Origin: Edaphochlamys debaryana
Lineage: Eukaryota; Chlorophyta; Chlorophyceae; Chlamydomonadales
Direction: 5' to 3'
DNA length: 64,000 bases
NCBI GenBank assembly: GCA_016858145.1
Contig: JAEHOE010000102.1
Span: 1-64,000, forward strand
In this document: piece after piece, positions 7,661 through 64,000 of the stretch
Layout of the letters: each line of letters opens with the position of its first letter
How positions within the stretch are numbered: position 1 is the stretch's first letter
Translations under genes and position numbers: made by a program
Notes under the pieces: generated by a model
What the model saw: only the letters and a program-made list of their open reading frames with translations
What the model was told of the DNA's origin: nothing
The model's database searches: none

Positions 7661-7735
7661 AGCTGGGCCACCGCCCTCTTCTGCACCATCCTGGACTTTA
7701 ACCTGCTGGGCCTGGTCCCCACCCCCGTGCCTCCG
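7661..7735 (+). repeat. Duplicate of the following exon start with its 3' splice site
   Basis: The first ~65 bp match the exon beginning at 7776 almost exactly: CAG, then the codons for WATALFCTIL with one A-to-D change and FNLLGLVPT. The sequence then diverges into CCCCGTGCC. It lies 115 bp upstream of the intact copy and keeps its own acceptor AG. It is probably a tandem duplication of the intron-exon junction. Splicing to it would truncate the protein. See the splice-junction echo finding. Confidence 0.85.
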
Positions 7736-7775
7736 AAACACACACACGCCCCCGCACCCCCCTCCCTCCTCCCAG

Positions 7776-10029: not shown

Positions 10030-13000
10030 CTAGGGCGCAGCGCAGTCGTGCACCCAGATAGCCTGCTGGAACAGCGGTGGCTGAGTGAACAGGGTCTGAG
10101 AGCAGTTGCCGGCGCTGAAGCCGCTCATGCCGTACGCATCATTCCTGTACGACAGGAAGGCCCCGCGGTGCGCCTGGTAGGCCCCCGGGTCCACGGTCGT
10201 CTTGTACTCGATCCAAAACCCAGGCCCAGGCCCAGAAAGATCAGACCTAAAGTACAGCACGAACGTGCCGTACACGGTGATGTCCGGAAGACCGTCTTGC
10301 CGTACGGAGCCGGACAGCGCGGCATACGGCGCGGCGGGGTTGGCGAGGGTGACAGAGGCCGCGGCGCTGGGAGCGCTACTGGTGTTTCCCGCCAGGTGTG
10401 CGAGGACGTCGGAGAGCTGTGCCTCCTCTGTGATGGGCTCTGCCGTGGGCCACAGCTCCAAGCGGTCGAAGAACGACTCCGTGGACAGATACCTGAGGGG
10501 GGGGGAAACGGGGGAAGAGGGGGGAAAGGTGTGTGTGTTTTGACACAGGGAGGGGTGCGTGTGCGGTGGGCCACAGCTCGAGGCGGTCGAAGAAGGACTC
10601 TGTTTACAGGTACCTGGGGTGCGCGGTGCAGCAGGGCGCAGGAGGGGGGGACAGGGACGGGTCCGCGCAGCGTGCTCCATGACACTTGCAGACGGTGGCC
10701 ACTGCCCCCTCTGCCGCTGCGTCCGACGCCCACACACTGGCCGCTGCTTTCCATCCCATGACCACGCACCTGATACGTATCGAGGTGACAGAGCCGTCAG
10801 GCGGGTTGAAGACCCAGGCGCAGCGCGTGCCGGGGCCGTAGGGCTCCATCCAAGAGCTTGGGTCGCCGGCGGGGGGCTCGGGCTGGGGCGGCAGCAGCTG
10901 CTGCAGGGGGCTGGCGGCGTCGTAACCCCAGTCCGAGGTCACGTGGCCCCAGAAGGGCCCCCCCTCGGCCATGACCAGGGCAGCCGGGGAGCAGACGTTG
11001 GCTGCGGTCGGGGGGGGGGTCGCATCAAGGCAAGGGGGGGGAGGTTACGGGTGTTGTGCGTAGGGGGGGTGGTACTGCCCCAGTCGTAAATACCCAGTTA
11101 GACAGGTGACAGCAACACGCACGTGCTACCACACAAGCTCACTTGTGGTGGCGTTGGAGCTGCCATCGATGACTGTGACGGAGAAGGACACCTGAGCCAC
11201 GTTCGACATGTTGTCCGTGACCGCACAGGTAACGAGGGTGGAGCCGACGGGGAACGTGTCCCCGGATCTGTACGGCACGCACGACAGTCTCGGATTCGCA
11301 TCTTGTTCGTCCGAGTACGTCACGGAGAAGTACACGGCAGTGCCGTTTGAGTCGGCTGCCGTACGGACCATGTCCCCCGGGTTGACCAGCAGAGCGGGAG
11401 CGGTGTCGACTGCGGGTGGCGAAGCGGTAGGGGGTTTTGGAGACACCAACGAAGCAAAGGTCGGGGCCCGCCCGCGCGGGGCGGAGAGCACCCATCAGTC
11501 CAAGTCAACCGCATACGGCGCAACGGACAGACGAGGAGACCCGATTCACCCGAAGGACATGCCCACAATGGCCACCGTCCCAAAAAAGTCAGCCTGGGTG
11601 TAACCCTGCCCCTCCTGAGGCCCCTCACCGACTGTCACTGTGAGTCGCCATCCTGCCGTGTGGCCGGCGGCATCGTTTGCCGTACACACCACTTGCGTGG
11701 ACCCCAAGGGGAAGACGGTCCCCGAGGATGGGGTGCACGACACGGGCAGCGTTCCCTCGCAAATGTCGTACGCATAGATCGGGATCTCCACAATGGCCCC
11801 TCCCTGGACGTTCGCCTCGCGATGCAGCTCGGAGGGCCCGTTAAGCATTGGAGGCCACGGATCCACGACCGTGACTGTGAACGACTCCGTTACAACCTCA
11901 TCAGAGTTGCCCACGGCCGTACAGTTAACAATTGTTTGACCGAGCGGGAAGAAGCTATTCGACGCGGGAAGGCAGGACAGGCTTACAACCCCGTCCGACG
12001 GGATGTAGTACCCCACGCTGGCGCCCACTACGCCGTTGCGCACGTGCATGCAGCCCCACGTGAGGTTGGACACCGTGATGCTTGGCGGGCGGTTAGCGTC
12101 GTACACAGTAACGTTAAACGTTACCGAGTCGGAGTTGCCAAAGGTGTCGGTGGCGCTGCAGTTGACGGTGGTGTCACCGATGGGGAAGAGGCTGCCAGAA
12201 GGAGGATCGCACGTGGCTTCTAGGCCAACTGCCACCTCATCCATGGCGATGACGGGGTCCCATGTCACCACGGCGCCGTCGCTGGTGCTGGCCGGGACGT
12301 TGATGTGGGGCGGAAGGGGCAGAACCGGGGCCTGGGTGTCATCTGTGAGGGGGGACAAGGCGCGAGGAGGGAGGGGGCACAGCCGGGGTCGTCCCCTCCA
12401 ACTAGAGCGCATCTCAGGGTTCTTTTGGGCAACGGGCATCTCGCGGTGCCATCCCGGTTAGGGGGGCAGAGCTGGGGGAACCGGCCAGCACCCGCACGCC
12501 ATGAAGTCTTATCAGGGCGCATCTCAGGGTGCCATCCCAGGGCACAGACCACGCCCCATGGCTGGCTAGCTAGGGAACCCCGGACAGCGCTCAAACTGTT
12601 CCTCACTCACCCACAAACACCTCGAACATCGCCCACGCCGTGTTGCCGTAGTCGTCGGTTGCCGTGCAGTTGACCGTGGTGGTGACGTTGAGGGGGAACA
12701 GCGACCCCGAAGCGGGGCTGCACACCACGAACGGGTGGGGGTCCACGTCATCGACGGCGGCGGGGAGCGTGTACGTGAAAATGGTGCCCATGGGCCCGTC
12801 AGCCTCCACGTAGTTCCACCCGTCAGACGAAATGTTGGCGGGCAGGGTGATGATGATCGGCGGGGTGGTGTCCACGACAGGGGCGGCCACTGAGGAGGGG
12901 GGGGAGGGGTGAGCGGGGTCAGGGCAGAGCGCAGGGAGGGCACGGGGAAAGAGGTAGGGGTAGATGGGAGGGAAAGTCCGGGGCGGGCAGGCGGGGATGC

Positions 13001-18797: not shown

Positions 18798-21700
18798 TCA
18801 GAAGCGGCCCGGCCCCGCGCCGCTGCCCGGCGGCCCCGCCGCGCTGCCTCCGCCCCCCGCCGCCGCCCCCTCCTGCAGCGTCATCTTGGCCAGCAGGGCG
18901 TCCAGGCGGTCGGCGATATCGGTAAAGGAGGGCCGGACGCGGGGGGAGCCGTGCCAGCAGGCCTGGTGGGTGCAGGGTGGTGCAGGGTGGGGCAAGGGGG
19001 GGAGGGTTGAGGTGAGCCATCAATGGTCTCAATACACCACCCGGCGGCCACCATCTGTGCATACGGAGCTGCCCGAATCTGCGCGGGACCCCCGCACGCC
19101 TGGTGAGAGCCCCCGCTCCCCTCCGTCCCTCGACCCTGCTCGACCCTCCCTTCCCCTCACTGCTCTCCTTTTCCGATGCTTGATAGCCTCCCTCCTCTCC
19201 TCCCCCCACAGCCCCCACCCCCACCTGCATCCGCGCCGCCCAGTCCCAGACCGGGTCGCACCAGCCCCCACCCACCCACCCGCGTCCCTCCTTTCCCCTC
19301 CCTCCCAGTCCAAGTCAGAGGGACAATACCCCTGCCATGAACCCCCCGTCCCCCCCCTTCCCCACCCCCACCTGCATGAGGGCCGCCCAGTCCGGGTCGC
19401 AGTCGGGCGGCACCCCCGGCCGCAGCGTGCCCGTCATGACGCCCGCAAAGATGTCAGCCAGCGAGATCGAGTTGTACGGCTGCTCGCCCAGGCACCAGAT
19501 CTCCCACAGCACGATGCCGAAGCTGAAGACGTCCACCTGGGGGCGGGGTGGGGGAGAGGAATGGGACGGGGGTGGGTGAGGGAGAGAGATGGGGTGATGG
19601 GGTGATGAGGGGTAATGAGGGGTTATTCGCTGCCCGCATCTTCCGCCGCCTGCTTAGCCCAGCCCTGCGGCCCCTCAGTCCGTGCCCCTAGCCCCGAGCC
19701 CATGACCCTAGTCCTTCCCACGGCCCCCGCCCTTCTCCCTCCCAGCCCGTCCTCTTCCCCTAGCTTCCCCCGCCTCCCCCTAGCTTCTTCTCCGCTTCCG
19801 ACAGCTCCCCCACCTTCTCGTTGACCCGGTCGTCTGCCAGCTCCGTGGTGTGCCCGTTGGCCTCCGCTGTGGGGGTCCAAGGGGGGGGGGCAAGGGGCAG
19901 TGAGCTAAGCGAAGCGCGGCGCTCTCCGCAGGCGAACTAGCGCGGGGCTAAGGGTCCGGGACGGACTCAGCCCCCCTCCTCGGTCGGACGGATGGTCCCC
20001 ACAGGAAGGATGCCGCCCACACCAGCGAAAGCCCTCTCCCTCCCCCGACCCGTCCCTACACAACCGGACCGGACCGGGCAAGACCGGACCGCCCCGGACC
20101 CAGGCCCACGGCCCCGGCCGGAAACAACCCCCACTTTCGTGCCTTCCCCCCCCCGCCTCACCCTGCTGCTTGCGCTCCCGCTCCCGCACCCCCGGGAACA
20201 GCTCCGGCGCCATCCAGGGCAGCGTGCCGCGCATGTTGCCCGACACGAAGCTGTCCTTCTTCTTCTGCAGGGGGGGCGGGGGGGAGAGGGGGGGGGAGAG
20301 TTCAAAGGATGCGGCGAGACGCAGGGCGAGGGGTTGCATGAGCGGGAAACAGTTGCCACTTGCCGCAGCAGGCGCCCAACCCTTCCCATCCCATCCCATC
20401 TCATCCCGTCAGCGAACAGCACGCACAGCACCGCCCGGCCCGCACCTTGCTGAGCCCCAAGTCCCCGATCTTGACCACGGGGCGCACTGGGTCTCGCAGG
20501 TCGCACAGCAGGTTGTCGCACTTGAGGTCAAAGTGGACCACGAACTGGCCGTGCAGGTACTCCATGCCGCGGGCGGCCTGGGGGGAGGCGGGGGGCGGAG
20601 GGGGCGGAGGGGGGTGTCAGGGGCGGGAGGTGTGTATGGGCGTGTGCGTGTGCGTGCGCGTGTCGATGTGCACCCTGCCCCTCCCTGACATCCTTGTCCG
20701 GCCTCCGCCCCTCTTCCCTCCTTCCCCCTCGCCCTCTCCTCCCCCGTCCTCCCCTCCCTCATCTCCCCCCCCACACACACACACCTGCAGCGCTATGGCC
20801 ACACGCAGCCGCTTGCTGATGTCAGCACCCTGCGAGTGGTGGTGTTGGGTAGGGCATGGGGGATGGCGGGTGTGCGGCTGGGGCGGGCGTGGTTGCGGTG
20901 CTGGCAAGGGGAGCACTCCCGCAAGTCACCCAACACTCTCGCAACGAAACCCCATGCTCTGATCCCCCCCTCCTCCCCTCTCAACCCCCCACCCCCCTAA
21001 ACCCCCCCACCTGCTTCCTCAGCCTGGTTAGCCCGCTCTTGAGCGAGCCCATGCGCAGGAACTCCACCACGGTGGCGTAGGCCCCCGGGGCCGTAACGAT
21101 GCCGTAGAAGGCGATGACGCAGGGGTGGCGCAGGGAGGCGAGCCGCTCGGCCTCGGAGAAGACCTGGGGGGGGGAGGTGGGGGGTGGGGGGTGGGGGGGA
21201 GGGGGTTTGGGCCGCGGATTCGGTGGGGGCTGCCGGCAGTACCGGTATGGCCCGCAAGCCGCCGCCCGCCCCACGAAGGCACCTGCCCGACCAATCCCAT
21301 CCTCCCGCAAGCCTCGCCACCCAGAGCCCTTGCCCCCTCCCTTGCCTCCCCCGCCCCCCTCCCCTGCCTCCCCCGCTCCCCTCCCCTGCCTCCCCCGCCC
21401 CCCTCCCTTGCTTCCCCCGCCCCCCGCCCCCCTCCCTTGCCTCCCCCGCCCCCTGCCCCCCTCCCTTGCCTCCCTCCCCCCTACCTCGCTCGGGGGTGTG
21501 TCCGTGGCCCCCTGGTTGAGCAGCTCCTTCATGGCCACCTCCACCCCCCGCCACCGCGCCAGCCACACGGAGCCGAAGCAGCCGCGGCCCAGCTCCCGGA
21601 CCTGAGTGGAGTGGGGGGTGGGGTGGGGGTCGGGGTGGGGTGAGAGAGAGGGGGATGAGGGGTGGGATGGGGTGGGGAAAAGGGGGTGTTTGAAGCTGAG

Positions 21701-24700
21701 ATCGGGAGAGCGTCTCGTGGGCGAGTGGGGGATGGGGGGTGGGTTGTTTGATAGGCGGGCAGGAGGCCCTCCAAAAGACGAGCAGCGCGGATGGGGGCGG
21801 CGTGGGTGGGGAGGTTGAGAGAGGGGAAGCGGGGGGGACGGGCGGCCGACCGGGGTAACTTCCGCGAGGGGAGGAGTATGGGTCGGGGAGCGGGGCCGGC
21901 GACGAGGGGCCTGCACCCAGAGCCGGGGGCGGATGAGTGGCGGCGAGAGGGCTCAAGCCCCAGCAGCTGAATGACACGCAGTCATCCACCGTACCGATTC
22001 GCACCCCCCACTCGCCACTCCCCTCCGCGCTCGCCCTTGTGCTCCATGCCCTCTTCCAACGCCGACCCCGCACGCCCACCCCACAACCTGCAACCCCGCA
22101 ACCTCTGCAACCCGCATTCCCTCGCTTTCTGCTCTTGGGGATTCGCTTCACTCGCTACTGTACTAACATATAATTCTTTGCTTGCTACTTCAATAGGGTC
22201 AGCGGCCCACCTTGATGATGTCGTCGGGGCTGATTCGCTGCAGGTGCTGCGGTATGTGCACGTCCAGGGCCGGGTCGGCGGGCCGCCAACCGCCGTCCGA
22301 GTCCCACAGCCCGTGATCCAGGGCCGAACCAACCGCCACCATGGGCAAGCCCCCGAGCAGGCCCGGCAGCCGCCGGGCGGGCGCGGCGGCGGCGGCGGGC
22401 GCGGCGGCGGGCGCGGCGGCGGTGGGCGTGGTGGCGGCGGCGGGGGCCGAGGCACTGGGCGTCGAGGGGGCGGGCGTGGCGGTGGAGGAGGTGACGGAGG
22501 TGGGGGTGGCGGTTGGGGCGGGGGCGGCGTGGGGTGTCGAGGCGGGGGCGGGCGTGCCGACGCCGGCGGCCGAGGCGGCGGCGGCGGCGGCGGCGGTTGC
22601 GGCTGGCATGGCAACGGAGGCGGAGACGCTCGCTTGGGACGCGGCGGAAAGCTGGGCAGTCCGGGGCGAGAGCAGTTGCCCGAGCGGCGGCGGTTGGGGC
22701 GTGTGGGACGACGCCCCGACGGCCAGGATCCGGCCGCTACTCGACGGAGACGGCCCCTGCGCCGACCTGCCGCCGTCAGCCGCCGCCGTCACGGGCGTCC
22801 CCGCCAGCGCCGCCGTCACCGCCGCCACGGCTGACGTGGCGACGGCGTTGGCGTTACTCAACCCCGCGGCCCCGCCGCCGCCACCGCCGCCGCCCAGCCC
22901 TGTCCCCGAAAGCGACCGCGGCGCCAGCGCCGCCGCCGCCGCGGAAAGCGACAACGACGCACCAACGCCGCCGCCCACGCCCACGCCTGGCCCTAGCCCA
23001 ACGCCCCCTCCCCCTCCGCCGCCTCCAATGCCTCCGCCAATCGTCGACGGTCCCACACCGCCCACCCCCGACGACAGGGAGGGGGAGGCGCCGGCGGCGG
23101 AGAGGCGCGGGGAGGGCGCGCGCTGGGGCGACCGGGCCCCGGGGCTGGGTATGGGGCTGGGCAGACCCAGACCGGAGGATGCTGACGTGGAGGGGCCGGG
23201 GGGGTGGTGCACATGCATCTCCGTGTGCCGCTGGAGCAGGACGGTCCGCCCCGGCTGTAGGCCCGTGGGGGTGGGGGCGGAGGCGGGCTGCGGGGAGGCC
23301 TCCGCGTGCGCTGGGGATGGGGCGGGAGCGACCGCAAGGGGGGGGGGAGAGGGGATGGTAACGGGGTGTAGGCCGCGACGCATGCAAGAAGGCCTACGTG
23401 GCTATACTCGGGGTGTGACATGCCCCATGTCCCGACTTGCTGAAGATACGGATCAAGCCCAGCGCAGTCCCGCCCCGCTCAGGCCCGGGCCCCCACTTCT
23501 CCGCAGCCACAAGCACGGGCCCGTTCGCCATTCGCCCACTAGCCCGCACCCACTCCCCAGCCTCGGCCTCCGCCTCACCTCTCCCGCCGCCCGCCGCCAC
23601 CGCCGCCGCCGCCGCCAGGTTCGCCACCGCCGCGTCCCCAGCGTCGCTCTTGCCGCTGCTGGCGGCCGACCCGCCGCCGCCGCCGCCTGCTCCGCCGCCG
23701 CCGCCGCCGCCCGCTGCCCGGGAGGTGCTCCGCACTGAGTCCCTCAGCCGCTCCTTGAAGGTGAGGGACACGTTGAGCGCCGCCTCCAGCTCCGTGTTGA
23801 GGCGCTGTTGGGAAGGAGAGCAAATGGGGGAGGAAACCGCCGCGGTTAGGGAGATGAGGTGGGGGCAAAGGGCGGGGGCAAGGGACGGTTGTAAGCCGTC
23901 CCATGTTGAGTTGTGGAGCGCAGCGGGGCCCCAGCCCCAGCCCCAGCCCCAGCCCCAGCCCCAGCCCCAGCCCCAGCCCCAGCCCCAGCCCCAGCCCCAG
24001 CCCCAGCCCCAGCCCCAGCCCCAGCCCCAGCCCCAGCCCCAGCCCCAGCCCCAGCCCCAGCCCCAGCCCCAGCCCCAGCCCCAGCCCCAGCCCAGCCCCC
24101 AACAGTCCACGGTGACCACAGCGGGCAAGCCTGCCAACATCCCCTTCCCAATGCCCAGCCGCCAAGTCCAGCCTCACGGCCGCAGCCTGCGCCACCCTGC
24201 CCCTCGCAGCTGCCCCTACCGGCCCCCTCCATCCACCACCACCCCGCTCGCCGTCCCCGCCTTGACGTATGGGTCACCCTCCATCCCACTGCCCAGCCTG
24301 CCCCCCGTCCCCTCCAGCACTCAGACCATCACCCCCCTCGGCGCTGCCCCCCGCCCTTTTCCGTCCTCCCTCCAGCCCCCTCCACCCCCCACCTCCGCCT
24401 CCCCCTCCCCACCTTGACGTATGTGTCGTCCACCGAGGGCCGGTCCTCGTCGCACGTGGGCATGGAGGGCCGGAAGTCCGACCCCAGCAGTGCGTCGATC
24501 TCCGACACGGTCTTCCAGGCTTTGACCAGCGAGTCCTCCCGCGTGGCGATCTGGGGGACGGACAGGGCCGGACAGGGGTGGGGACAGGCAGGGGTGGGGA
24601 CAGGGGTGAGGTCAGGGGGGAGGACAGGGATGAGGACAAGACAGGGCCGGCCAGGGACGGGGAGGGGCATGGTCAGCTGGCTGGCGAAGCTCTCGGCACT

Positions 24701-26873: not shown

Positions 26874-29474
26874 CCTTCCCGGGCCGGGCCCCTCCTCCGT
26901 GGCAGCCGCGGCCGTAGCAGCAGCAGCAGCAGCCTCCCACGCGGCCTTCGGCTCGCCCCACCTCTCCCGCGCCTCTTCGCACCATGCCGCCCGGCTTCAA
27001 AGGTCCGGAACGACGCGCTCGCCCCTCCTCACCCGCGCCGCAACAGCCGTGGCGGCGGCGGCCCCAGGCCGGCGGCCCGCCGACGCCAGCAGAGGCGCAT
27101 CCCCCGACCCCGCATCGCCCACCCCCACCCGCCGCCAGCCCTCCACCCCCGCCCGCGCCTCCCCGCCCCCCGCCTCCCCCACCCGCTCCATCCTCGACGC
27201 CGCCTCCTCCTCCCGCCGCCCCTCCTCCCCCTCCCCCTCCTCCCCCTCCCCCTCCCCCTCCCCCTCCTCCCCCTCTCCCTCCCCCGTCACCTCCGACCCG
27301 GCTCCCTTCCGCCGCCTGCAAGACGGCCGCCAGCTCGTCTACCTCCTTCCCTCCACCACAGCGGCCCTGGGCGCCGGCGCTCTCTCCCGGGCGCTGGGGC
27401 GCGAGGGGGTGGCGGCGGCGGCCTTTGCGGGCGGCGAGGGCGGGCTCAAGGGGCTGAGGGTGATGACGCTGGCCGGCATATTCATGGCCAGCTTCCACCG
27501 GGCGCCCAGCTTCGTGGTCACGGCCCGGGAGGCGCAGGTGGGGGGCAGGGATGGGGCATGGGGGGGGAGATTGGGGGTGTTTGAAGCTGATAAAGGGGGG
27601 GGAGATTGGGGGGGAGGACACAAGTGGGGAGGGGGGGATGAGGGCAGGGGAGGTCCCCTCAGCGTCGTGGTCACTGGCCGGGGAGGCGCAGGTGTGTTGG
27701 GGGAGGAGAGACAAAGGAGGGAGGGGAGGGATGGGGTAGGGCAGGGCAGGATTAAGGGGGAGGGGGTCGGGCCAAGGGTGGCAAGAGAGGGGAGAGGAGG
27801 GGAGTTGAGGGTGGGGGGACAGGACTGGGGCAGCTGTGCGGTTATGGCCCGGGAGGCTCAGGTGGGGGGGTTATTGGGGGAAGTGGTGTGGGGCGAGAGG
27901 GGAAGGGGATGGGAGAGGGGGGGGACAGCAGGGGGGCAGGGGGGGCGCAGGCGTGGACAGGTCAGTGGAGGCCTTGGGGGGAGGTGGCAGGGGCGGGAGG
28001 GGACGGGAGAGGCGGGGAGGGGTAAACGTTCAACGCTCCACCCGCCTGCCGCTTCCCCCTTCCCCCCACCCCGCTGCAGAATGGCAGTGACTCGTTCGAG
28101 TACCGCGTGTCGGCCCGCGCCCGCGCCCTGGAGCCGCACGAGGCGAAGATGCCGGTGAGGGGCTGGGGAGAGGGAGGAGGGGGAGGGGGGTAGGGGGTGG
28201 GACGTGAGGGGCAGGTGCGGGGTGTGGAGCAGGGGGCTGCATGGCGAGCAAGGGAGGGGGCAGCGCCGTGGAGTGACACCAGGGGGCGGGGCAGCCGGCA
28301 GCCATCCAGGGGGCTGGGCTCAACAACGCACACGTGACCCCTCCGTCTCGAGACGCGGCCCCTCTCTCGGACGCCCTCCTCGCCCTCCCCCTCCCCCTCC
28401 CCCACAGTCCGCCCTCCGCACCGCCCGCTTCCTGCTGGACCTGTCCCTCAGCGTTCGGCAGTCGTGGGACGCCAAGGGGGAGGTGGACGAGGAGCAGGTG
28501 GGGGGAGGGGCGGGGGAAGGGGGGGAGGAAGGGCAGGGCACGGCACGGCACGGGATCGCCACCCTGGCCCCTGGCGCGTCGGCAGCACCTAAAACGCTCC
28601 GTTACACCTCCCTCTCGCCCGCCTCCCTGCGCCCAAGCCCTTGGCCTCGCCGGCACGCTCTACGCCGCCCTCCGACGCGTTGGCGAAACCCACACACATT
28701 CCCCACCCCTCTCAACCCCTTATCCCCCTGCACACACACCCCTTCCACCCACCCCCAGGCCTACGACCTGGCCGACACGCTCTACGCCGCCCTCGCGGCG
28801 CACCAGGCGGACCGGGACGCGCAGTGGCAGCAGCAGCAGCAGCAACTGCAGGCGCGACAACAGCAGGCACAGAAGCAGCAGCAGAAACAGCAAGGCAGGG
28901 GCCAGGGCCAGGGCCGGATGCAGGGCAAGCTGGGGTCCGGCTCCGGCTCCTCGCTGCCCGCCCGGCAGCAGCAGCAGCAGGGGGAGGACGGCTCGGCGCC
29001 GTGCGTGTTTGTGACGGCGGACCTGGCCCAGGGCCTGACCACGCTCACGGCGCTGGGGCTGCTGAGCAAGCGGCTCAAGGACGAGGGCCAGCAGGTGGGT
29101 GGGCGGGGGTGGGCGGGCGGGGGCGGGAGGGGAAGTGGGTGCCGGCCGGGTGTTACGCGGGGCTCGCCTCCCATTAGGTGGTCGCCGATACCGCCATGTG
29201 CTGCTCCTTAGGCGCCCCACTGCCTCCCTCGCCTCTCCCTTTCACATTTCCTGTCTCCCCTCCACCCCAGGCGGTGGCTGAGACCACCATCTACCGCTCC
29301 TCCATTGCCGCCCCCCGCCTGGACGGGCGCGAGGGCTGGGTCTTCACCGTGCGACTGGCGTTCCCCGAGGACTACAAGCCGCCGCCGGCCGTCGCCAGGC
29401 GCGGCATTGGATACAGATCCGGATCTGGAACTGGATCTGGAACTGGATCTGGAACTGGATCTGGCCGGACGTAG
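26874..29474 (+). CDS. Unrecognised protein with two possible Alba/SpoVS-like repeats
   Basis: Supported exons: about 26874-27537 (5' border uncertain), 28080-28154, 28408-28497, 28759-29094 and 29271-29474 (TAG). All junctions from the first donor on are phase 0. The N-terminal part is Ala/Pro/Ser-rich low complexity. Then comes a beta-alpha-alpha-beta-beta-like unit: RQLVYLLPSTT, a helical stretch with ALSRALGREGV and LAGIFMASFHRA, and FVVTAREAQ with FEYRVSARARAL. After a Gln-rich linker a second unit is seen: PCVFVTADL, TALGLLSKRLKDEG, VAETTIYRSS, WVFTVRLAF. The spacing is like Alba/SpoVS small nucleic-acid-binding domains, which some green algae possess, but sequence identity is too low to be sure. 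The tail SGSGTGSGTGSG comes from a GGATCTGGAACT repeat. The start codon was not found; an upstream exon is likely. Confidence 0.55.
27661..27870 (+). repeat. Two decayed copies of an exon end and donor
   Basis: The exon end at 27511-27537 (GTGGTCACGGCCCGGGAGGC, then GCAG and GTGGGG) recurs at 27665-27693 (GTGGTCACTGGCCGGGGAGG, then CGCAG, GTG) and at 27843-27868 (TATGGCCCGGGAGGCTCAG, GTGGGG). The copies lie about 150-180 bp apart in direct orientation inside the intron. Confidence 0.8.
28631..28680 (+). repeat. Decayed copy of an exon start in the preceding intron
   Basis: CCCTTGGCCTCGCCGGCACG, then CTCTACGCCGCCCTC, repeats the beginning of the exon at 28759 (CCTACGACCTGGCCGACACG, then CTCTACGCCGCCCTC). 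The preceding AAG replaces the real CAG acceptor. It lies about 120 bp upstream of the intact copy. Confidence 0.75.
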
Positions 29475-35035: not shown

Positions 35036-38000
35036 ATGACGGGTGATGTGCACAAACCGGGGCAGGCCTTTGAGGCCTACAGCGACCCAAAGCGAGCCAA
35101 AGTGCACGTGTCCTATGGCTTCAAAGTGGCCCTCGTCGCCCTAGACTGCGTCTTCCTAGGTGAGGCCGCAGCGTCCTGCAGGGCAGGGGCAGCCGGCTTA
35201 CGGCTGCTGCCCGGCTTCGTCCGGGACCATTGCTGCACGCACCTGCATACGGCGTCAGGTGTCCGTTGTCAGGTCGTCGCGACTGTCGTTCTTGCCGGCG
35301 AGGACCCTCGCGGGGCTGGTGGGGAAACGCCCCCTGGCCATGTGGGTTGGCAGGTCCCAGCTGATGGGTAGCGCTGGGGGAATAGGAGCTGGTGTGAAGG
35401 GGGCAAGGCGGAGGCACACGACCTCCACTGGGTTCCCCACCCACCCCACGGCCCATCCTGCCGCGCTCAACAAACCTTTCTTTGCGCCCCTGGGCCTGCA
35501 GTCCGTGCTGTTGCTCCTACGCCTACGGAGAAGGACTTCTCCGCCCTTTCCCTGCGAGGCGTCGCGATGATGTCCTCCGCTGCCCTCCAACTCCCGCCCA
35601 CCCACCCCCCTCCTGCCTGCCCCTCCCACCCACCCCCAGGCCTGCAGCCGGTGCTGGTGCACCTGTCCAAGAACAGCAAGGGGACGTACTCGTTCCACCC
35701 CGTGGCGGTGGGTGGGAGAGGGGAGGGGGAGAGGGGTTTGGGGGGAGGGGACACGTGGGTCGGGAGGGCGAGAGGGGGCACATCGTCAATCCATCCCGTC
35801 GCGGCGGTGGGAAGGGACAACTGGGTTGGAAAGGGGGAAGGGGCAAAGGGGCACGTGGGTCGGGAAGGGGCTGAAGCCACAGAGGGGCGGCGGAAGCGTG
35901 GGCAGATGAGGGGGGGGGGGCGAGGCAGGGGGCCAGGGGACCTCAGCGGTCAACTTCGCGGCCAGGACCGAGCTAGCACGGGCCTGGGTGTCTGGGTCGT
36001 TCCACACGGGCCCGTGATGGGGTGTTTCAGGCGACTGGCCCTCAGGGTGCACCAGCGTCGGGAGCAAGCGCGGCACCCAACAGCAGTAGCGGCTCACCGA
36101 GGGGCAGCCTGCGTGGCCGACTGGGCTTGCCGGCCTTGCAGCCGGGGGCCCTAGGGCTGCCCTTGTGCTGGGGGCAGTGTGGGCACTGCGACGGACAGCC
36201 GGCGCCAGCGGGAGCGTCCTGGAACTAGTCCGCCCAGTGCCGCACCCCTGGGTTGAGGACGCTTGGCGGTGGCAGGCGCTGGACTGTGTGAGAGCTGCTC
36301 GTGTATGGGCGCTAGACTGTGTGTGAGGGCTAAGAAGTCACAGCGCAGGGCCTTCGCAAAGACTCCCCTTCAGCCCCCGTTCACCATCCCTCCCCTTCCC
36401 CCCAGGTGAACTTCATGGTGGAGCTGGCCAAGACGCTGTTCGCCATCATAGTGCTGTTCTTCACGGTGGGGGTGCGGGGTGGGGGGTCGTCGGGTTGGAG
36501 GTGGGGGCGGGGGTGCGGCCGGCATGCCAGGCGGGTGGAATGTGGGCGGGGTGCGGGGGGGATGGAGGGACCAAGGCCGAGGGAGGACCTTGCGGATGGG
36601 TGTGATGGGGGCCCCTCGAGGAGCTGGGGCTGGGGGTGCCGGCAGCGGGGTGCCGGTAGGGAGGGCCTGGCCAAGGCATGGGCCAAAGGCGCCGGCGAGG
36701 GTTGGGTATTGTCGGGGTCACGGAGGCCCGAGCGAGGGGCGGGGGAGGGAGGGTTACTAGAGAGAAGGGCTGGGAGGGGGGGCAGATGGACCCTCCATGC
36801 GACCGGGCTCCTAGCCCCTAGCTCCCGCCGGCCAGCCGTCAACCCACGCCCATCTGACTCCAGCCCCCTTCTCCCGCCTCCCCGCCCCCCCCAGGGCACC
36901 GGCCGCACCGGCACGCCCATGTACCGCTCCGTCCGCTCCTTCCTGGTGGACGCGCACCACAACAAGCTGCTGGCGGTGCCGGCGGCGCTGTACGCGGTGA
37001 ACAACAGTCTCAAGTTCAGCATGCAGGTGGGGAAGGGGGAGGGGAGGGAAGGGAGGGGGGGGGAGGGGGGAAAAGGGGGGCAGTAGTAGGTAGGGGAGGT
37101 TGGAGGGGCGCCGGGGTGCGTGCAGGGCAGGTGCGCAGGGGGTAGGTGGGTAGGTGGCCGCTCGTAACAGGGCCGTAGGCGAGCGGGGCAGCGCGCGGGA
37201 TACCGTAGGATGGCGGAGCCCAGGGCCCAGACGTGGGCCTTCACAAGTGCCGCCGGCGCAATCCGGCTCAGCTCGCCCTCCCTCCACCGCCAGTACCCCC
37301 TTCTTTCCTCCTGGCCCTCTCTCCCCAGTGACCCGCTAAGAAACAGGCGTCGCCCTCCCCCTCCCTCTCCTCCCTCCTGCCACGCGACTTCCCCCCCCAG
37401 CTCTTCTTCCGCCCCACCACCACCAAGATGCTGGGCAACCTCAAGATCTTTACCATCGCGCTGCTTATGAAGGCCGTCATGCGCCGCAACTTCAACGTCA
37501 TCCAGTGGGAGGCGCTGTTCCTGCTGGTGGCGGGTGAGGGGGGGGGCTGGGGGGGGGGGGAAGGGGTGCGGGGGGAAGGAGCGGGGAGGGGGGCAGGTGG
37601 AGGGGAGACGGGAGGGGGTAAGGGGGAGGGACGGTGCTGTGGGAGGCGCTTTTCCCGCAGGTGCTGGGTGAGGGGGTTGGGGAGAGGGAAGGGGGGCGAC
37701 GGCAAGGCCAGGAGATAGGCACGGCAAGGCGTCGTGGGACGAGGCGCCCGCCGCACCGCCCTTCCCACCTCCCTCCGCCCCTTTGCAGACCCTCCTGCGT
37801 CTGCTCCGCCCTCCTCCTCCTCCCGCCCCCGCCGCCTCGTCCTCTCGCTTGAGCAAAAATCCCCCCCCTCCCCCCCCAGGCATCACCATTAACCAGCTGC
37901 AGTCCTGCGGCTCCGGGCCCAACCCCGACCTCAACGTGCCCCTCGTCCCCGCCGTGCTGTGCACGCTGGGCACTGTGACCGTGCCCGCCGCCGCCTCGGT

Positions 38001-40301
38001 GTACAACGAGTTCGCGCTCAAGAAGCACATGGACACCAGCGTGCACCTGCAGGTGGGGGTGGGGAGTGGGGGTTGCCTGGGATGTAGCATGTCGCGACGC
38101 ACGATAGACACGGGAAGCGAAATGAAGGCATTTACATGGACACCAGCGTGCACCGCAGACCGGTGTGGGGATGGGAGGATGGAATTTGTGTGTCTGCCGG
38201 GCTAGGAAAGGTCAAGGGACGGTTAAGAGCACATGGATACCAGTGTGCACCTGCAGGTGGGGAGGGTGGGGGGGGGCCGAGGGTGGGGGTGTGTAGGTAT
38301 CATCTTGGCGTCTGTCGGCTAGCCACAGACCTGTGAGAGCACATGGACACTAGCGTGCACCTGCAGGTGGGGGTTGGGGCCGGGGGAGGGGGGGGGGGTG
38401 GAGTGTATGCCATACCTTCAGGGGACTCGGGTACATCTCCACGTGGACACCAGCGTGAACGTGCAGGTGGAGTGGGTTGTTGGGAGGGAGGGGGGGGGGG
38501 TTAGCAGCGTGCACATGCAGGTGTGGTCGGAAGCCGGGGCGACGCGCGGTGAATGCGGGAAGTGAATAGTACGGTACCTGCTGTCGGTTGAGACAGCGTA
38601 GAGAGGACGTCAGCGAGCGCGTACACAGCGTCTGTGGGTTACGGGGCAGGGCGCGGCTCGAGGGAAGCACAGGGACGCCGGAGTTGACGGCAGGAGCAAG
38701 GGCTGAGGGCGGGGCCTGCTTTGCCTGCTTCTGCTTCACACGCCTCCGCGCTCACGCAGCCTGCTCCGCCTGACAGCCCCTCTGCCTCACCTCTCCGGAG
38801 TTCTTCCCACACTTCTGCGGTGAAGTGCAATCCTGCTTCACTCCCCCCCTCCCTCCTAACCTCCCTCGGCCCCTCCTCCCTCGCCCCTCTGCCTGCCACC
38901 TCCCCAGAACTTCTTCCTCTACTTCTACGGCGCTGTGTTCAACTTTGCCTTCCTGACCGTCACCGCCATCCACAACCGGCAGCACCTGGGGGAGATGTTC
39001 CAGGGTGAGCGCGGGGCCCAGGGGGGCGGGACGGCAAGGGGAGGGTGTGGTGGGAGGAGGCGGGAGGCATGGGGGATGGGGGATAGGGGATGGGGTGCCA
39101 CAGGGCTAGAGTGAGGCCCCAGCGTGTGGCTAGGCGGGAGGGCATGTGGGTCGGGCGGGGGGGGGGCCAGATGGGATGAGGGGTCCCGGATGCGGCCTTC
39201 GCCGTAGTGTGCCCTGCCCCCCCTCCCCCTCTCCCCCTGCAGGCCTGTCGCTCATCACGTACCTGCTCATTGCCAACAACGCAGCGCAGGTGGGAGCGGG
39301 GTGGGGTGGAGTGAGGGGTTGCGGGGGAGGCTGTAGGCACGGGCGCTGGTGGGGGCGAGAATGAGGAGGAACTCCCCCCTCTCCCCTCTGTCACAACACC
39401 TTGTCATAAACATCGCTCTTCCGCCTCCCCCCCCAGGGCGTGCTCTCCTCCTTCTGTAACCATCCACCCCCCTCCCTCCCTCTACCCCCTCACCCCCCCC
39501 CCCCAGGGCGTGCTGTCCTCCTTCTTCTACAAGTTCGCCGACACCATCCTCAAGAAGTACTCCTCCACCATCGCCACCATCTGGACCGCGCTGCTGTCCT
39601 TTGCGCTGTTCGGCCACGCGCTCACCATCAACTTCTTCCTGGGCGTGTCCATCGTGTTCGTGTCCATGCACCAGGTGGGGGGCGGGGGGGGCCGGAGGGG
39701 GGTGGGGTGTGTATGGGAGGGCACGCGCTCACCATCAACTTCTTCCTGGGCGTGTCCATCGTGTTCTTGTCCATGCACCAGGTGGGGGGCGGGGGGGCGG
39801 GTGTGTGTGTTTGGGGAGGGGAAGGAGGGGGTGGGGGGCGGATGTGGGCGTTGGGTCTGAGGCTGGGAATGGGGCTTGGGCAGGGGCGGGGTCGGGGGTT
39901 CTGTCCGGGCGGGCAAGAGCTCGCAGGGGGGCTGACATGTCAAGGGCAGCGTGGGGCTTCGTCAGACCAACGAAGACCTGGCCGCTCAGGATGCTCGGTG
40001 TAACCCTGCCCGCGCCCCCGCCCGCCCCTGCTCCTCGGACCCTTTCCTTCCGCGCCCTTCCCTGCCCTTCGAGCCTTCACCCAGAGTAACCCCCCTCCCC
40101 CTCGGCCCCTTCTCCCCCTCCCCCCATCCCCCCCAGTTCTTCACGTACGGCGACAAGCCCAAGGTGGGGGAGCCGCGGCCCAAGATGCTCTACTCGCCCT
40201 CCCTGGACCACATCGCCCTGGCGGCGGCGGGGCAGGCGGGGGCGGTGGGGGCGGGGCCGGGCGAGGGAGCCGACCTGCGGCGGCCGCTGCTACCGCGGTA
40301 G
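35036..40301 (+). CDS. Golgi nucleotide-sugar transporter (SLC35A/CMP-sialic acid transporter-like)
   Basis: Ten exons: 35036-35159, 35640-35707, 36406-36465, 36895-37026, 37401-37533, 37880-38052, 38908-39004, 39243-39289, 39507-39674 and 40137-40301 (TAG). All are GT-AG with consistent phases, giving 388 residues. The product is a polytopic membrane protein of the nucleotide-sugar transporter family, which exchanges a cytosolic nucleotide sugar for the nucleoside monophosphate in the Golgi or ER lumen. Family landmarks: [35 protein letters not shown] (the A/Y-x-x-N-N signature), [24 protein letters not shown] (the E-x-x-x-K near helix 7) and [14 protein letters not shown] with [16 protein letters not shown]. 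The closest human relatives would be SLC35A members; substrate cannot be read from sequence. Several introns carry decayed copies of the neighbouring exon ends. The start could lie in an additional upstream exon. Confidence 0.9.
35484..35520 (+). repeat. Decayed copy of transporter exon 2 start
   Basis: GGGCCTGCAGTCCGTGCTG, then TTGCTCC, echoes AGGCCTGCAGCCGGTGCTG, then GTGCACC at the exon starting 35640. The acceptor AG has become GG. It lies in the preceding intron, 155 bp upstream. Confidence 0.65.
37635..37675 (+). repeat. Decayed copy of transporter exon 5 end and donor
   Basis: GTGGGAGGCGCTTTTCCCGC, then AGGTGCTGGGTGAGGGGG, echoes the exon end at 37505-37533 plus donor (GTGGGAGGCGCTGTTCCTGC, then TGGTGGCGGGTGAGGGGG). 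It lies 130 bp into the intron, and the donor GTGAGG is preserved. Confidence 0.75.
38027..38470 (+). repeat. ~100-bp-period array of an exon end with its 5' splice site
   Basis: The exon 6 end and donor at 38027-38056 (ACATGGACACCAGCGTGCAC, then CTGCAG|GTGGGG) recur at 38134 (truncated), 38231, 38341 and 38441, with a weaker trace near 38508. Spacing is 97-110 bp. The copies at 38231 and 38341 keep CTGCAG|GTGGGG intact, and the 38441 copy keeps GTGCAG|GTGGAG. The first unit is coding; the rest lie in the intron. Each retained GT could act as an alternative donor. Confidence 0.92.
38778..38841 (+). repeat. Decayed copy of transporter exon 7 start
   Basis: CCCTCTGCCTCACCTCTCCG, then GAGTTCTTCCCACACTTCTGCGG, echoes CCCTCTGCCTGCCACCTCCC, then CAGAACTTCTTCCTCTACTTCTACGG at 38886-38931. 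The acceptor AG is GG in the copy. It lies about 108 bp upstream of the real junction. Confidence 0.75.
39426..39459 (+). repeat. Copy of transporter exon 9 start with intact acceptor
   Basis: CCCCCCCCAGGGCGTGCTCT, then CCTCCTTCTGTAAC, repeats the acceptor and start of the exon at 39507 (CAG, GGCGTGCTGTCCTCCTTCTT), 70 bp upstream. The AG is preserved, so it is a potential cryptic 3' splice site. Confidence 0.8.
39719..39797 (+). repeat. Near-perfect copy of transporter exon 9 end and donor
   Basis: About 60 bp of the exon end (codons for [15 protein letters not shown] and SMHQ) plus the donor GTGGGGGGCGGGGG are repeated 107 bp downstream with only two or three changes. This is the least decayed echo in the window and so probably the youngest. 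The duplicate donor is intact. Confidence 0.92.
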
Positions 40302-48568: not shown

Positions 48569-48682
48569 TGGGGTGCGCAGTGAGCTTTCGCAACCAAACT
48601 GGCCTACGCTCCGTTTCCGCACCTAAGCCGCGCTCCACCCAACTTGAGCAACATGTGCCTGTTCGGTCATTCTACTGTAGTT

Positions 48683-59375: not shown

Positions 59376-60062
59376 TTGGGCTGAAGAAGAGGTGGGGCTG
59401 TTGGTGCATTGGGGAGGAATGACTTATGGGGAGGATGTGGCGAAAGAGGATTTGAGGGCCGGGCAGGGCCCTGGGCGTCGAGGGGGCCCAAATCGGGGGG
59501 TGGGGTGGGGCAGGAAGCTTGGCCCCCACCGTGTTGCGTAAAGGGGCAACTCTTGATGACAGCGGCGAAGTGTCAGGGGTAGAGAGCGAGGTTGTGGCGC
59601 GCAACCAAGCCCAGTCCTACGACGCCGTAGGCCCAGAGGCCTGGCCAGTCGCCTGCCAGCACACGTCACGGGTCGTGACAGCGTCGTGACCATCCCGTAC
59701 CGTTGTCACAGTCGTCAGCCATACACTGCCCTAACTCCCTCGCCGGGAAGAACGATGCCGGCGATACATAGGTCCATGGCGTGCGGGACGGGCGAGGACG
59801 GGCGGAGGCGAGGCACGGCACGCGATGAGGGCGGTTGCTGAGACTCGGGGCGCTCAACACCCGCGTCATACCATCTACCATATCCGTCTTGTACTATCTA
59901 GTTTGTGTTTGTGGCACTGTAGCCTCGTGATCCCAGTCGCGTGCGTCGCGTGGGCCGCGCTAGGGCTCACTACTGCCGAGCACTCCGCACCCGGGTCCAG
60001 GACCCAGCTTGCCTCGTCGTCATCAGAGCATAGGGTCTTTCGGACACGGCGGGCTTGCAGCG

Positions 60063-63000
60063 ATGAGGCCGCTGCGGGCCACCATCGCGGTGGTGGCGCT
60101 AAGCTTGCTCGCGGCAGCTGTGGAGGCTGGTTACAGCATCGAGTCGGCAGGGGTGAAGATCATTATGCCTCCCGACCAGAAAAAGGTGGTCAAGATGGCG
60201 ATGGCGGATTTCGGAAAGGTGCGTCTCCGCCAGACCTTGCAGCGGTTTGGAAACCCAGTCCATCGACCGGAAATCGAGCCTTGCGCACATGTCTCTCCAA
60301 AGCCGGGCACTCAAGGAGGGTTGGCAATTCACGCGTTGCAGTCGGCAAGCTGGCCAGCGTCACATCCGGCTGATCCAAGCCTATGCAGGTCCACGTAATG
60401 GGAACCGCGTTGGCGTGCAAGCCATTTGCATATTCGTGGGCCCAGAACACCAAGCACCGTAACCCGCGACTCGCGCGTCTGCCTTGGCAAGGTGCCAGCA
60501 TCGCGTCCACACGGACTTAAGTGTTTACGCCCGTTGAAGGCTGGAGCAGGGAACGTCGCGGCCTCTTGGTCCCCATAACACCCTTCCGGCTGGGCACGCC
60601 AGTGCGGCGCCTGGGGCGCTCAAATCCCCCCCCCCTCGCCTTCCAATCCTTGCCTGCAGCCCAAGTATGGTGGCTCCATGATTGGCTCGCTGGTGTACCC
60701 AACCTCGGCCACCGGCTATCCGTCGGCCAACAACAACCTGGGCTTCAAGTGCTACCCAGAGGACTGCCAGTACGGCTGCGAGTTGTTCAATGTACGGCAG
60801 GACGGAGGATGGGTGTTGGGAGCGGTTGTAGTGGTGTTGCGGGGGTTTGATGTGGGTTCCTCGAGGGCGGCGAGGCGGGCTGGCTGCGGCTGTGCAGGGG
60901 GTTCAACCGGAGGTCATAGCCGGGATGCCGGAACTGTAGCGCCGGAAAGGGACACGGCGCGCTAAGGAGCTCCCTTGTCATGAAACGGTACCAGTTTCGA
61001 AGGCGGGGACGACCCACTACGCCTCCCCAGGCATACCACCAGCCCCCCCCCTCCCCCCAACCGGTACTCGCCGCTTCCACCTGCTTCCTCCTCCTTCTGA
61101 GCCAGTCCTCCCTGCGCCCCTCCCCTTTGTCTCCCCTCCTCCTGGCGACCCCCCAGACCTCCATTCCCCCCTTCCGCATCCCGCGAGAGGCGGGCAAGTT
61201 CAACATCATGCTGCTGGACCGCGGCCCACGTGAGGAGGGAGCCCAGCCCTTGAGGGGGGGGCGGGCAAGCTTCTTCTAGGCAGGAGGGCGGCAAGTGTGC
61301 ACAGGGCAAGGGGAGGTCAGCAGCGCTATGGGCGTCTTCCTCGGGCTTCGAAGCACGGGGCGGGGCGGGAGGAGCCCAGCCCGGGTGGGTTTGCGGGGGG
61401 CAGGGGGGCGAGCAGTTCTTCTCCAACTTGCAGTGGTTGCGGGCGGGTTTGGGCGCGTCGTGGGGCAGGGGTGGGGCACAGGCTTCGCAGGGCTGCCGGG
61501 GACGCAGGGGCCGGCCCCCGGAGGCACGGGGTGGCGAGCGGCATGCCCCCGTCAGGCGGGGGCGGGTCCTTAGGGGATCCCGGGAACCCCCCTCCCTACA
61601 CACACACACCGTCTGGGCGCACGTAGCAGTTGGCTGGTATGCACTTGGGCGGACCGCGGGGGCGAGCGGCCGAGGCTGCCCGGCTGGGGCCGGGCCAGCG
61701 GTTGCGGCCTGGCGGCCCCTCCTAGGGACCCCCGCGGCCTCCACGTGTGTGCGGAGCTCCAAGCTGCCTACACCAGGGTTCGCACGCACACGTCCCGCCC
61801 CGGCTCATGCGAGCAGCCCTCCACACACCTCCCCCTCCCCCTTCCTCCAGGCAACCAGCTCGGGCACACCGCCTGCTACTTTTTGGACAAGATCTACCAC
61901 GCGCAGCTGGCGGGCGCGGACGCGGTCAGTTGGCGGTTGGTCGTTGGCGGTTGGGGCGGTTGATGGCAACGACCATCACGCGGGCGATGACTCCCCCGCT
62001 CGTCATGCGCCCACCTCCCGCCCTGTTGGTTTTGGCATTCTCAACCGCCAATGTGTCAATGACCACCCCGGTCGTTGCCCCCTGCCACACCCACCCCCCT
62101 CCCCTCCCCCAAAGACTAACCCGGTCGGTCCCCCCCCCCTCCCGCCCCCTCCACCCCTCCAGGTGCTGGTGGCTAACGATGAGACGGGTGACCTGTCCAC
62201 CGCTGTGGCACCGGAGGACGACGACACAGCCAAGTGGGGCGGGGGCGGGAGGGGGGGACTTGAGGGGGGGGGCTGTTCTCGTACTGCTCAGCGGCAGCGG
62301 GGGTTTGTCAGGGGCCGGGGTCTGTGTGTGCGGAGGACGGCAAGGGGGCCGGAGGCGGTAGTCGCTGTGTTTGATGTGCCCAGGCAGGCGGGGGGAAGGG
62401 GGGGAGCGGGGGTCTGTGGGCCCCGGGGACGACGACACGGCAAAGCGGGGATTGGGGCGGGGGCGGGGGCGGGGGGTGGAGGGGTGTGGTGGTGAGCGGG
62501 GTGGATTCCGCTGCGCTTTGAGGCATGTGGGTCGGGCCCTGCTCAGAGTGTCTGAGATGGACGGAGGGGGCTCAGGGCGGGGGCCAGGGGGCCCATGATG
62601 TCTCTCCGTCCCTCCTCCTGGTCCTCCCCCCGTCCCTCTCCCCCCCCCCTGACCCTCTCCCCCCTCCCCCCCTGACCCCCTCCCCCCCTTGACCCTCCCT
62701 CCCCCCCTGTCAGGACCCTGGCCGCCATCGACATCTCCGCCGCCATGATCTCGCTGGAGGACGCGCTGCTGCTGCGGGAGCTGCTGCGCAACGGCCCCGT
62801 GCAGCTGCAGCTCAACTGGACGGCCGTGGTGCCCAAGCAGGCCGTGGTGGGTCAAGGGGCGGGGGGCTGGGGGTGGGGGGTGGGTGGGTGGGGAAGGGGT
62901 GCCCAAGCAGGCCGTGGTGGGTAAAGGGGCGGGGGGCTCGGGGTGTGGGGGGGTGGGGGGTGGGGGGGAAGGGGTGCCCAAGCAGACCGTGGTGGGTGGG

Positions 63001-64000
63001 GGAAGAGTGGGATGGGGGGGGGTTGATCATTGACGAACTGGAAACCGGAGCGATTTAGGGGTGTGTGGCGGCAGCCAGCGAGCCCAATGCGTACCAAGGT
63101 TTGGAGGGGGCGGTAGGTGGGTGTGGGTGGCGAGTTGGGGGTGTGTGTGGGGCAGCTGGGGCTGGGGGCAGGGCCGCCGAAGCAGGCCATGGTGGGGACA
63201 GGGGGTGGGGAGTGAGGGGGTTGTGGTACAGGGTACAATGCGGGGGGAGGCGGGGGCGTTGCGGCAGGCCGCGGTGCCCTGGCGGGCGGTGGTGGGTACA
63301 GGGGGGGGCTGAGGGCGGCGGGGGGAGTGGCGGCAGAGCGTGTGACCCAGGATCGGGGTCTGGGCCGGGGCCGTGTTGACAGGGAGCAAAGGGATCGGGG
63401 CTTGGGGGCGGGGTCGGGGTGGGGGAGCCCGGGCGGTTGGGCGCTGAAGCGTCGGTCGGGCGTGCGGGCGGGGGGCTGGCATGGGTCCTCGCCGCCGCCT
63501 GAACCCGCCTTTCCCGCCCTCCTTTCAACACCCGTCCCCCTCACGCGCCCCGCTGGGCAACTGGGCGGCTGGCTGGCCGCCCCTTTCCTCCCCTCGATAC
63601 AGCCCCTCCCCACTCCCCCGCTCACCCCCCGCGCACCCCCCGATGGCCACCCCCCCTCACCCCCCAGGTGGAGTGGGAGTTCTGGACCAACTCCAATGAC
63701 GAGTGCGGCGCCGGCTGCCGGTCCCAGATGGACTTCGTGAGGGTGAGGGGAGGGGGGGGAAGCAGGACGGCGGGGCGGACGGGTGGTTCGTGCGGCGGGA
63801 GGGAGGTGACGGGAGGGGGTTGAGGGACATCCCTCGCGATCTTCGTACGCTCAAATTATCTTCCCTCCCCCCCTCCCCCCTCACCGCCCTCTCCCCTCTC
63901 CCCCCCCCCCCCCAGGACATGCGGGACAAGGCCCAGGCCATGGAGGCCCGCGGCCAGGCCCGCTTCACGCCCCACTACCTGCTCTGGAACTGCCCGGCGG
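60063..64000 (+). CDS. Vacuolar sorting receptor, 5' part, cut by the window edge
   Basis: Exons: 60063-60218, 60660-60791, 61157-61229, 61851-61924, 62163-62233, 62714-62846, 63668-63742 and 63916-64000 (continuing). Phases agree throughout. Plant VSR/BP-80 receptors are type I membrane proteins that bind vacuolar cargo in the Golgi/prevacuolar route. The ATG at 60063 opens a signal peptide (LRATIAVVALSLLAAAVEA). A PA-type lumenal domain follows: PKYGGSMIGSLVYP, IMLLDRGP, a Tyr-Phe-x-x-K-like stretch (CYFLDKIYHAQLAGADA), VLVANDE, AMISLEDALLLRELL. The VSR-specific signature comes next: VEWEFWTNSNDECGAGCRSQ and RFTPHYLLWNCP. EFWTNSNDECG is nearly invariant in plant receptors, so the assignment is firm. 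The EGF repeats, transmembrane segment and tail lie beyond the window. Confidence 0.92.
62898..63303 (+). repeat. Decayed copies of a receptor exon end and donor
   Basis: The exon end and donor at 62829-62852 (GTGCCCAAGCAGGCCGTG|GT, then GGGT) recur at 62899 (near-perfect, donor intact), 62972 (one change in the exon part), 63174 (CCGAAGCAGGCCATG|GTGGGG) and more weakly at 63262-63300. All are direct copies within the same 821-bp intron. The first two are about 70 bp apart. Confidence 0.85.

What the first reader, a model, noticed from the sequence alone, without database searches (positions are those of the whole stretch)
7661..63303. Splice-junction echoes: introns carry decayed tandem copies of adjacent exon ends with their splice sites
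At twelve or so junctions in at least six unrelated genes on both strands, an intron contains one to four direct copies of the last or first ~20-75 bp of the neighbouring exon, including the GT donor or AG acceptor. Donor-side copies: 19222 (kinase), 27661 and 27841, 37635, 38134-38470, 39719, 62899-63200. Acceptor-side copies: 7661, 10566, 28631, 35484, 38778, 39426. Offsets are mostly 70-180 bp. Decay ranges from near-identity (39719) to in-frame stops (10570) and lost AG (38795). This implies continuing tandem duplication across exon-intron borders, lengthening introns and creating spare splice sites. It differs from the known AGGT-duplication model of intron birth, because here the duplicated unit includes existing intron sequence. 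I know of no named description of it. The three sulfotransferases, the peptidase and cofactor E show none by eye, so it may depend on the G-rich intron starts.
Basis: seen in the sequence. Interest (0 to 1): 0.88.

Follow-up and report, generated by a model that had tools for sequence, protein, structure and literature searches.

The report
Exon ends tandem-duplicated into algal introns
In this green alga some introns carry an extra, often decayed copy of the neighbouring exon's edge with its splice site, apparently left by small tandem duplications in the G- or C-rich stretches beside splice sites, which would be one way its introns have grown long.

Summary
The echoes are real and not confined to this window. 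The alga is Edaphochlamys debaryana (protein match). A gene finder trained on this genome gave 394 introns in 314 kb. Exon ends matched their own intron better than 200 draws from other genes' introns at 17 of 286 donors and 11 of 290 acceptors; reverse-complement control 2 and 2. Two later blocks: 4 of 78 donors, 0 of 80 acceptors. The copies look like tandem duplications of mostly 70-211 bp spanning the junction, not AGGT intron births: none of 33 lies nearer than 105 bp to the other intron end. Echo introns are longer by about one unit. Uniform duplication with neutral decay predicts 31% of events at junctions; 33 of 54 were seen. Requiring a G- or C-rich tract in the unit predicts 63%. I therefore read splice-flanking tracts as duplication hot spots. 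Against: a tract-rich block had no echo in 57 introns, and the small exon share of units is unexplained. Homologous proteins use the outer splice sites at nine junctions checked. Use of inner sites is untested. New variant of a known kind.

The parts
39612..39690 (+). Exon end, donor site and intron start of the nucleotide-sugar transporter gene (source copy)
39719..39797 (+). Donor echo, offset 107, 97% identical, GT kept
38024..38060 (+). Exon end with donor, same gene (source of a four- to five-copy array)
38134..38539 (+). Array of decayed donor echoes (copies near 38134, 38228, 38338, 38440; a fifth possible near 38506)
37505..37540 (+). Exon end with donor, same gene
37639..37674 (+). 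Donor echo, offset 134, GT kept
39424..39455 (+). Acceptor echo of the exon starting at 39507, offset 70, CAG kept
35487..35518 (+). Acceptor echo of the exon starting at 35640, offset 146, AG lost; weak
38776..38820 (+). Weak acceptor echo of the exon starting at 38908, offset about 107-110, AG lost
27507..27540 (+). Exon end with donor, gene W4
27660..27694 (+). Donor echo, offset 153, GT kept (a weaker copy lies near 27831-27936)
28632..28678 (+). Acceptor echo of the exon starting at 28759, offset 122, AG lost
62203..62239 (+).
62414..62450 (+). Donor echo, offset 211, GT now GC
62828..62850 (+). Exon end with donor, same gene
62898..63022 (+). Two donor echoes (62898 and 62973), GT kept at the first; weak outlying copies near 63167
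10441..10498 (-). Exon start with acceptor, minus-strand gene W2
10562..10619 (-). Acceptor echo, offset 121, CAG kept
19221..19246 (-). Donor echo of the exon end at 19372 (gene W3), offset 147, GT kept; borderline
24247..24282 (-).
7652..7734 (+). Acceptor echo of the exon starting at 7776, offset 113, CAG kept; my gene finder called part of it (7663-7704) an exon

Best explanation
Short tandem duplications, mostly 70-210 bp, arise preferentially where the sequence is G-rich (after donor sites) or C-rich (before acceptor sites). When a unit also takes in some 15-60 bp of exon, the intron gains a copy of the exon edge with its splice site. Splicing keeps using the outer site, so the change is nearly neutral; the inner copy decays while the exon copy is held by selection, which makes the event visible as an echo. 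The intron is left longer by one unit. Shown: the repeats, that they span the junction, the excess at junctions, the association with tract richness, the length difference of about one unit, and use of outer sites at the junctions checked. Inferred: that the tract provokes the duplication (stalled fork, G-quadruplex or R-loop break, microhomology-guided rejoining), near-neutrality, and that inner acceptors are purged more than inner donors.
For: Echo excess over introns of other genes and over reverse complement, replicated at donors in two blocks not used for training. Several copies repeat the intron part as well as the exon part, e.g. C4 20947, C1 37855, C200 38773. Annotation-free scan, offsets 60-220: 22 donor, 10 acceptor (11 with 7652), 10 intron, 8 intergenic, 3 CDS-end, 6 exon-exon. 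Uniform duplication predicts 31% at junctions, observed 33 of 54, p 6e-6; at score 23 or more 30% against 22 of 26. Tract-containing units predict 63% (p 0.89) and 64% (p 0.04). G content of intron +7 to +46: 0.62 with donor echo, 0.51 without, p 0.001; C before acceptors 0.68 and 0.58, p 0.017; quartile trends. Median intron length 383 (donor echo) and 361.5 (acceptor echo) against 216.5; one unit subtracted, 208.5 against 221, p 0.59. Outer sites used at five transporter junctions, one NOA1-like and three dynein junctions.
Against: Block C50 has the highest mean G content at donors (0.55) yet 0 of 57 introns with an echo (chance about 0.007 before allowing for eight blocks). Between genes, windows followed by a tract had 0 hits of 402 (about one expected, so no power). 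At the looser window-level test intron-internal (28 of 825) and intergenic (30 of 1120) windows also exceed the null, close to the acceptor rate (8 of 266; donors 22 of 291). The exon share of units (mean 0.27) is smaller than in the uniform, tract-containing or tract-centred simulation (0.44, 0.37, 0.34; all p below 0.001). Some young copies lack the intron part, e.g. C1 15401, exon part 29 of 29 in the alignment but no GT. In one search block C126 had more far-control hits (36) than local hits (20), so local repeats there are hard to judge. No experiment on cause.
Confidence: 0.62

Rival explanations
1. Plain background: tandem duplications fall anywhere, and those across exon borders are merely easiest to see because one copy is conserved and the change is harmless.
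For: Local repeats also occur within introns, between genes and across CDS ends; one conserved copy does raise visibility.
Against: Simulation with one-sided decay and the same detector gives 31% at junctions against 33 of 54 observed, and 30% against 22 of 26 for the best-matching pairs. Caveat: real intron decay in G-runs may be faster than simulated.
Confidence: 0.17
2. A process tied to splicing or transcription itself (for example R-loops over the G-rich coding strand at intron starts, or RNA-templated repair) copies exon edges specifically at junctions.
For: Donor echoes outnumber acceptor echoes 22 to 11 where the tract model expects 14.2 to 19.6 (p 0.007); best-matching pairs are more junction-bound than the tract model predicts (22 of 26 against 64%, p 0.04); small exon share.
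Against: Most of the junction share is predicted without any reference to splicing; units include intron sequence, so a spliced RNA is not the template; the donor-acceptor difference can also come from selection.
Confidence: 0.15
3. These are intron births from AGGT tandem duplication, or decayed duplicate exons.
For: Exonic sequence does lie inside introns.
Against: None of 33 echoes lies nearer than 105 bp to the opposite intron end; the weaker hits that are not in that set come no nearer than 83 bp. The duplicated unit holds one junction and existing intron, not a whole exon with both sites. One event (C200 17481) may be a whole-exon duplication.
Confidence: 0.04
4. Assembly or gene-model artefact.
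For: G-rich repeats are hard to sequence, and the models come from a home-made gene finder.
Against: Exon-part identity is graded from 70 to 100%; the published assembly is PacBio 40-49x with Illumina correction (PMC8226300, passages); homologous proteins run through nine checked junctions without gaps.
Confidence: 0.02

Closest known systems
Stwintronisation: duplication of the donor of an existing intron (Lipomyces, PMC7138796; passages)
   Same: A functional donor of an extant intron is duplicated within that intron, proposed to follow repair of an asymmetric double-strand break.
   Different: There the proposed duplication is 4-7 nt and the interest is nested introns; here units are 70-211 bp, include exon, occur at both intron ends and in many genes.
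Intron gain by tandem duplication of proto-splice sites (Drosophila, PMC2891723; passages)
   Same: Tandem duplication places exonic sequence and splice motifs in an intron.
   Different: There a new intron is born between two copies of AG/GY; here an existing intron is lengthened and the echo lies well inside it.
Tandem-array origin of alternatively spliced human introns (Zhuo et al. 2007; only its citation seen; paper not held; content recalled)
   Same: Sequence similarity at intron borders explained by tandem duplication.
   Different: As recalled, there the two intron boundaries resemble each other; here the exon edge recurs inside the intron.
Natural tandem duplications in rice attributed to nick-induced breaks (Vaughn and Bennetzen 2014, seen only as described in the review PMC7407515, passages)
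   Same: Insertions of 10-1000 bp, tandem or partly tandem, some with material from within 200 bp.
   Different: Not described there as concentrated at exon-intron borders or G/C tracts.
G-quadruplex breaks and tandem duplications in C. elegans end-joining mutants (PMC8654963, passages)
   Same: G-rich motifs cause breaks repaired by end joining; tandem duplications arise by polymerase-theta joining.
   Different: There the G4 breaks give mainly deletions, and the duplications come from aborted recombination in helq-1 mutants.

Membership tests
Short tandem duplication | Two adjacent direct copies, offset equal to unit length | tested here: met
   Met in the cases whose intron part also repeats (read by eye, e.g. 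C4 20947, C1 37855, C200 38773); not clear where the G-rich part has diverged or is absent (C1 15401)
Short tandem duplication | Microhomology at the breakpoint | tested here: inconclusive
   Several copies begin at a G-run in the exon (by eye); no formal test run, and chance extension into G-rich intron gives the same look
AGGT / proto-splice-site intron gain | Copies bound the intron, one at each end | tested here: not met
   0 of 33 echoes within 100 bp of the other intron end; minimum 105 bp
Stwintron | Duplicated donor inside an existing intron | tested here: met
   GT (or GC where the donor is GC) kept in 19 of 23 donor copies (hand count)
Stwintron | Internal intron excised in a separate splicing step | not testable with these tools
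   No RNA reads
Tandem exon duplication | Whole exon with acceptor and donor duplicated | tested here: not met
   Units hold one junction in the 33 events; one possible whole-exon case outside that set, C200 17481
Introner elements | Near-identical sequences in introns at many loci | tested here: inconclusive
   Own-genome search with 39600-40000 gave itself plus two short partial matches (88% and 79%); only this locus was searched

The most novel reading that the evidence does not exclude
The strand-polar tracts of volvocine introns (G-rich start, C-rich end) are standing duplication hot spots that ratchet intron length upward in units of about 70-200 bp and keep supplying decoy splice sites, with inner acceptors purged more than inner donors. 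This would be a mutational cause of the unusually long introns of the whole clade.
Probability: 0.33. Interest if true: 0.8.

Novelty: new variant of a known kind. Interest (0 to 1): 0.6.

Why it matters
Craig et al. [quoted passage not shown] Echoes offer a countable mutational route: 32 of 382 introns here, about one unit of length each, and 4.1% of intron bases if one copy per event is counted. They also form a natural series of duplicated splice sites, from near-identical to decayed, on which splice-site choice could be tested.

Tried and rejected
Uniform tandem duplication with one-sided decay: rejected by simulation, although the looser window counts had seemed to allow it. AGGT intron birth and whole-exon duplication: see the membership test. 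Clustering of echoes within genes: not significant (p 0.20; 0.31 without the transporter gene). A test of G/C tracts between genes had no power (0 of 402 windows). The ten paper searches (open-licence PMC library only) showed me no description of recurrent exon-edge copies lengthening existing introns; for nearly all papers only the listing and start of abstract were seen. Passages were read in six: PMC2891723, PMC3488318, PMC7407515, PMC7138796, PMC8226300, PMC8654963. No paper was read whole.

Rows dropped or changed by hand: 12 secondary array members were listed for dropping and only offsets 60-220 were counted, leaving 59 of 101 events. W38024 (offset 314) was outside those counts and was added. 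W7652, which the gene finder had made an exon, was moved by hand to acceptor, but is not. The 33 junction events were a hand-typed list taken. In one search the observed exon shares were typed in, with one value (W27507) changed for a gap in the alignment; one search used the computed values (31 of 32 events after a score cut). Splice-site retention was counted by hand. CAG was kept in 4 of 11 acceptor copies, but one of the 11 never had CAG; with 4 of 10 the comparison with donors gives p 0.035, with 4 of 11 p 0.016, and for AG alone (6 of 11) p 0.11. These tests were chosen after seeing the data.

Full report
What is there. The window lies on contig 102 of a 141.9 Mb genome in 502 contigs. 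A protein predicted from its transporter gene is 100% identical to HYH03_014278 of Edaphochlamys debaryana over 96% of the query; the published assembly of that alga is 142.14 Mb in 527 contigs (PMC8226300, passages). Four of its thirteen positions, and the outlying copies of a fifth, are weak; two further donor echoes had been missed.

Gene models. I wrote a small hidden Markov gene finder, self-trained on the window and 200 kb from five other contigs (one search failed and was rerun), then applied to 50 kb from two more: 394 introns in 56 predicted genes. The learned donor is G|GTGRG and the acceptor C-rich with CAG. Pfam's nucleotide-sugar transporter domain covers residues 63-347 of gene W6, hence three of its five echo introns; the PA domain of W12 covers one of its two echo junctions, and the receptor domain starts at the other. 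Homologues run without gaps through all five W6 echo junctions in the E. debaryana, C. schloesseri, V. africanus and Astrephomene proteins (Gonium: four of five), through one NOA1-like acceptor junction in the four relatives compared, and through three dynein junctions (two in five relatives, one in two); a fourth dynein junction was aligned in one relative only, and poorly. The other echo junctions were not checked this way.

Chance. The last 60 bp of an exon match their own intron better than all of 200 random draws from introns of other genes at 17 of 286 donors, and the first 60 bp at 11 of 290 acceptors; about 1.4 each are expected, and the reverse complement gives 2 and 2. A few of these 28 hits are marginal, one point above the null. 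The signal sits within 40 bp of the junction. In the blocks not used for training it was 4 of 78 donors, all in one dynein gene, and 0 of 80 acceptors. By block, echoes occur in six of eight: window 12 of 77, C126 3 of 41, C1 5 of 41, C10 3 of 34, C50 0 of 57, C200 5 of 52, C4 4 of 74, C22 0 of 6.

Anatomy. The scan made 199 local window hits, 27 on the reverse complement and 43 against far sequence (36 of these in block C126, where local hits were only 20). Of 101 merged events, 59 with offsets of 60-220 bp remain after array members are dropped: 22 donor, 10 acceptor (11 with 7652), 10 within introns, 8 between genes, 3 across CDS ends, 6 exon-exon. In the 33 junction events the exon part is 14-63 bp of units of 70-211 bp (one array member 314), with identity 70-100%. 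In several cases the intron part is repeated too, so these are tandem duplications across the junction; in others the G-rich part has diverged or is missing. Echo introns have median lengths of 383 (donor) and 361.5 (acceptor) against 216.5; with the unit subtracted 208.5 against 221.

Mechanism. A forward simulation placed duplications uniformly, let non-coding copies decay, and ran the same detector: 31% at junctions expected, 33 of 54 seen; at the higher score 30% and 22 of 26. Requiring the unit to contain a 40-bp window with at least 60% G or 60% C predicts 63% and 64%. Echo frequency rises with tract content on both sides; over all introns p is 0.002, with the same direction in each third of intron length. 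I therefore favour tract-provoked duplication. In C. elegans, breaks at G-quadruplex motifs are repaired by end joining, though mainly as deletions, and tandem duplications arise by polymerase-theta joining in helq-1 mutants (PMC8654963, passages); a like process here is inference. Against or unexplained: block C50 is tract-rich and has no echo; the exon share of units is smaller than in any of the three simulated models; the best-matching pairs are more junction-bound than the tract model predicts (p 0.04); and at the looser window test intron-internal and intergenic windows also exceed chance.

Donor-acceptor asymmetry. Donor echoes outnumber acceptor echoes 22 to 11, where the tract model expects slightly more acceptors (p 0.007; against an even split p 0.08). 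GT or GC is kept in 19 of 23 donor copies and AG in 6 of 11 acceptor copies (p 0.11); for CAG, 4 of 10 (p 0.035). An upstream AG is met first by a scanning spliceosome (established knowledge, recalled), so acceptor duplications should be more harmful; a transcription-linked cause would also fit. This is suggestive only.

Place among known things. Tandem duplication as a source of new introns is known (PMC2891723), as is the proposal that duplicating the donor of an existing intron starts nested introns (PMC7138796). What I did not find described, within an open-licence library, is recurrent, tract-linked copying of exon edges that lengthens existing introns. I therefore call it a new variant of a known kind.

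Noticed in passing
L022:2051-2209 and L022:4460-4596 (contig 200): Direct repeats across predicted stop codons: the last codons of two predicted genes recur 135 and 109 bp away in flanking non-coding sequence, like echoes without a splice site (scores 18 and 20, near the threshold).
   Followed up: partly
The family name was not tested.
   Followed up: no
block C50 (L016-L019): No echo in 57 introns despite G- and C-rich intron ends; unexplained, possibly chance across eight blocks.
   Followed up: partly
block C126 (L004-L007): More hits against far sequence (36) than against near sequence (20) in the repeat scan, which points to dispersed repeats there.
   Followed up: no
block C200 positions 26542-27079 (L022:6542-7079), minus strand: An intron with a GC donor whose echo, 78 bp inside, keeps the GC.
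   Followed up: no
P0007 in alignment A1: The V. carteri annotation of the transporter has extra segments at two exon junctions and lacks a conserved segment, which looks like gene-model error or intron retention; the insertions are not at echo junctions.
   Followed up: no
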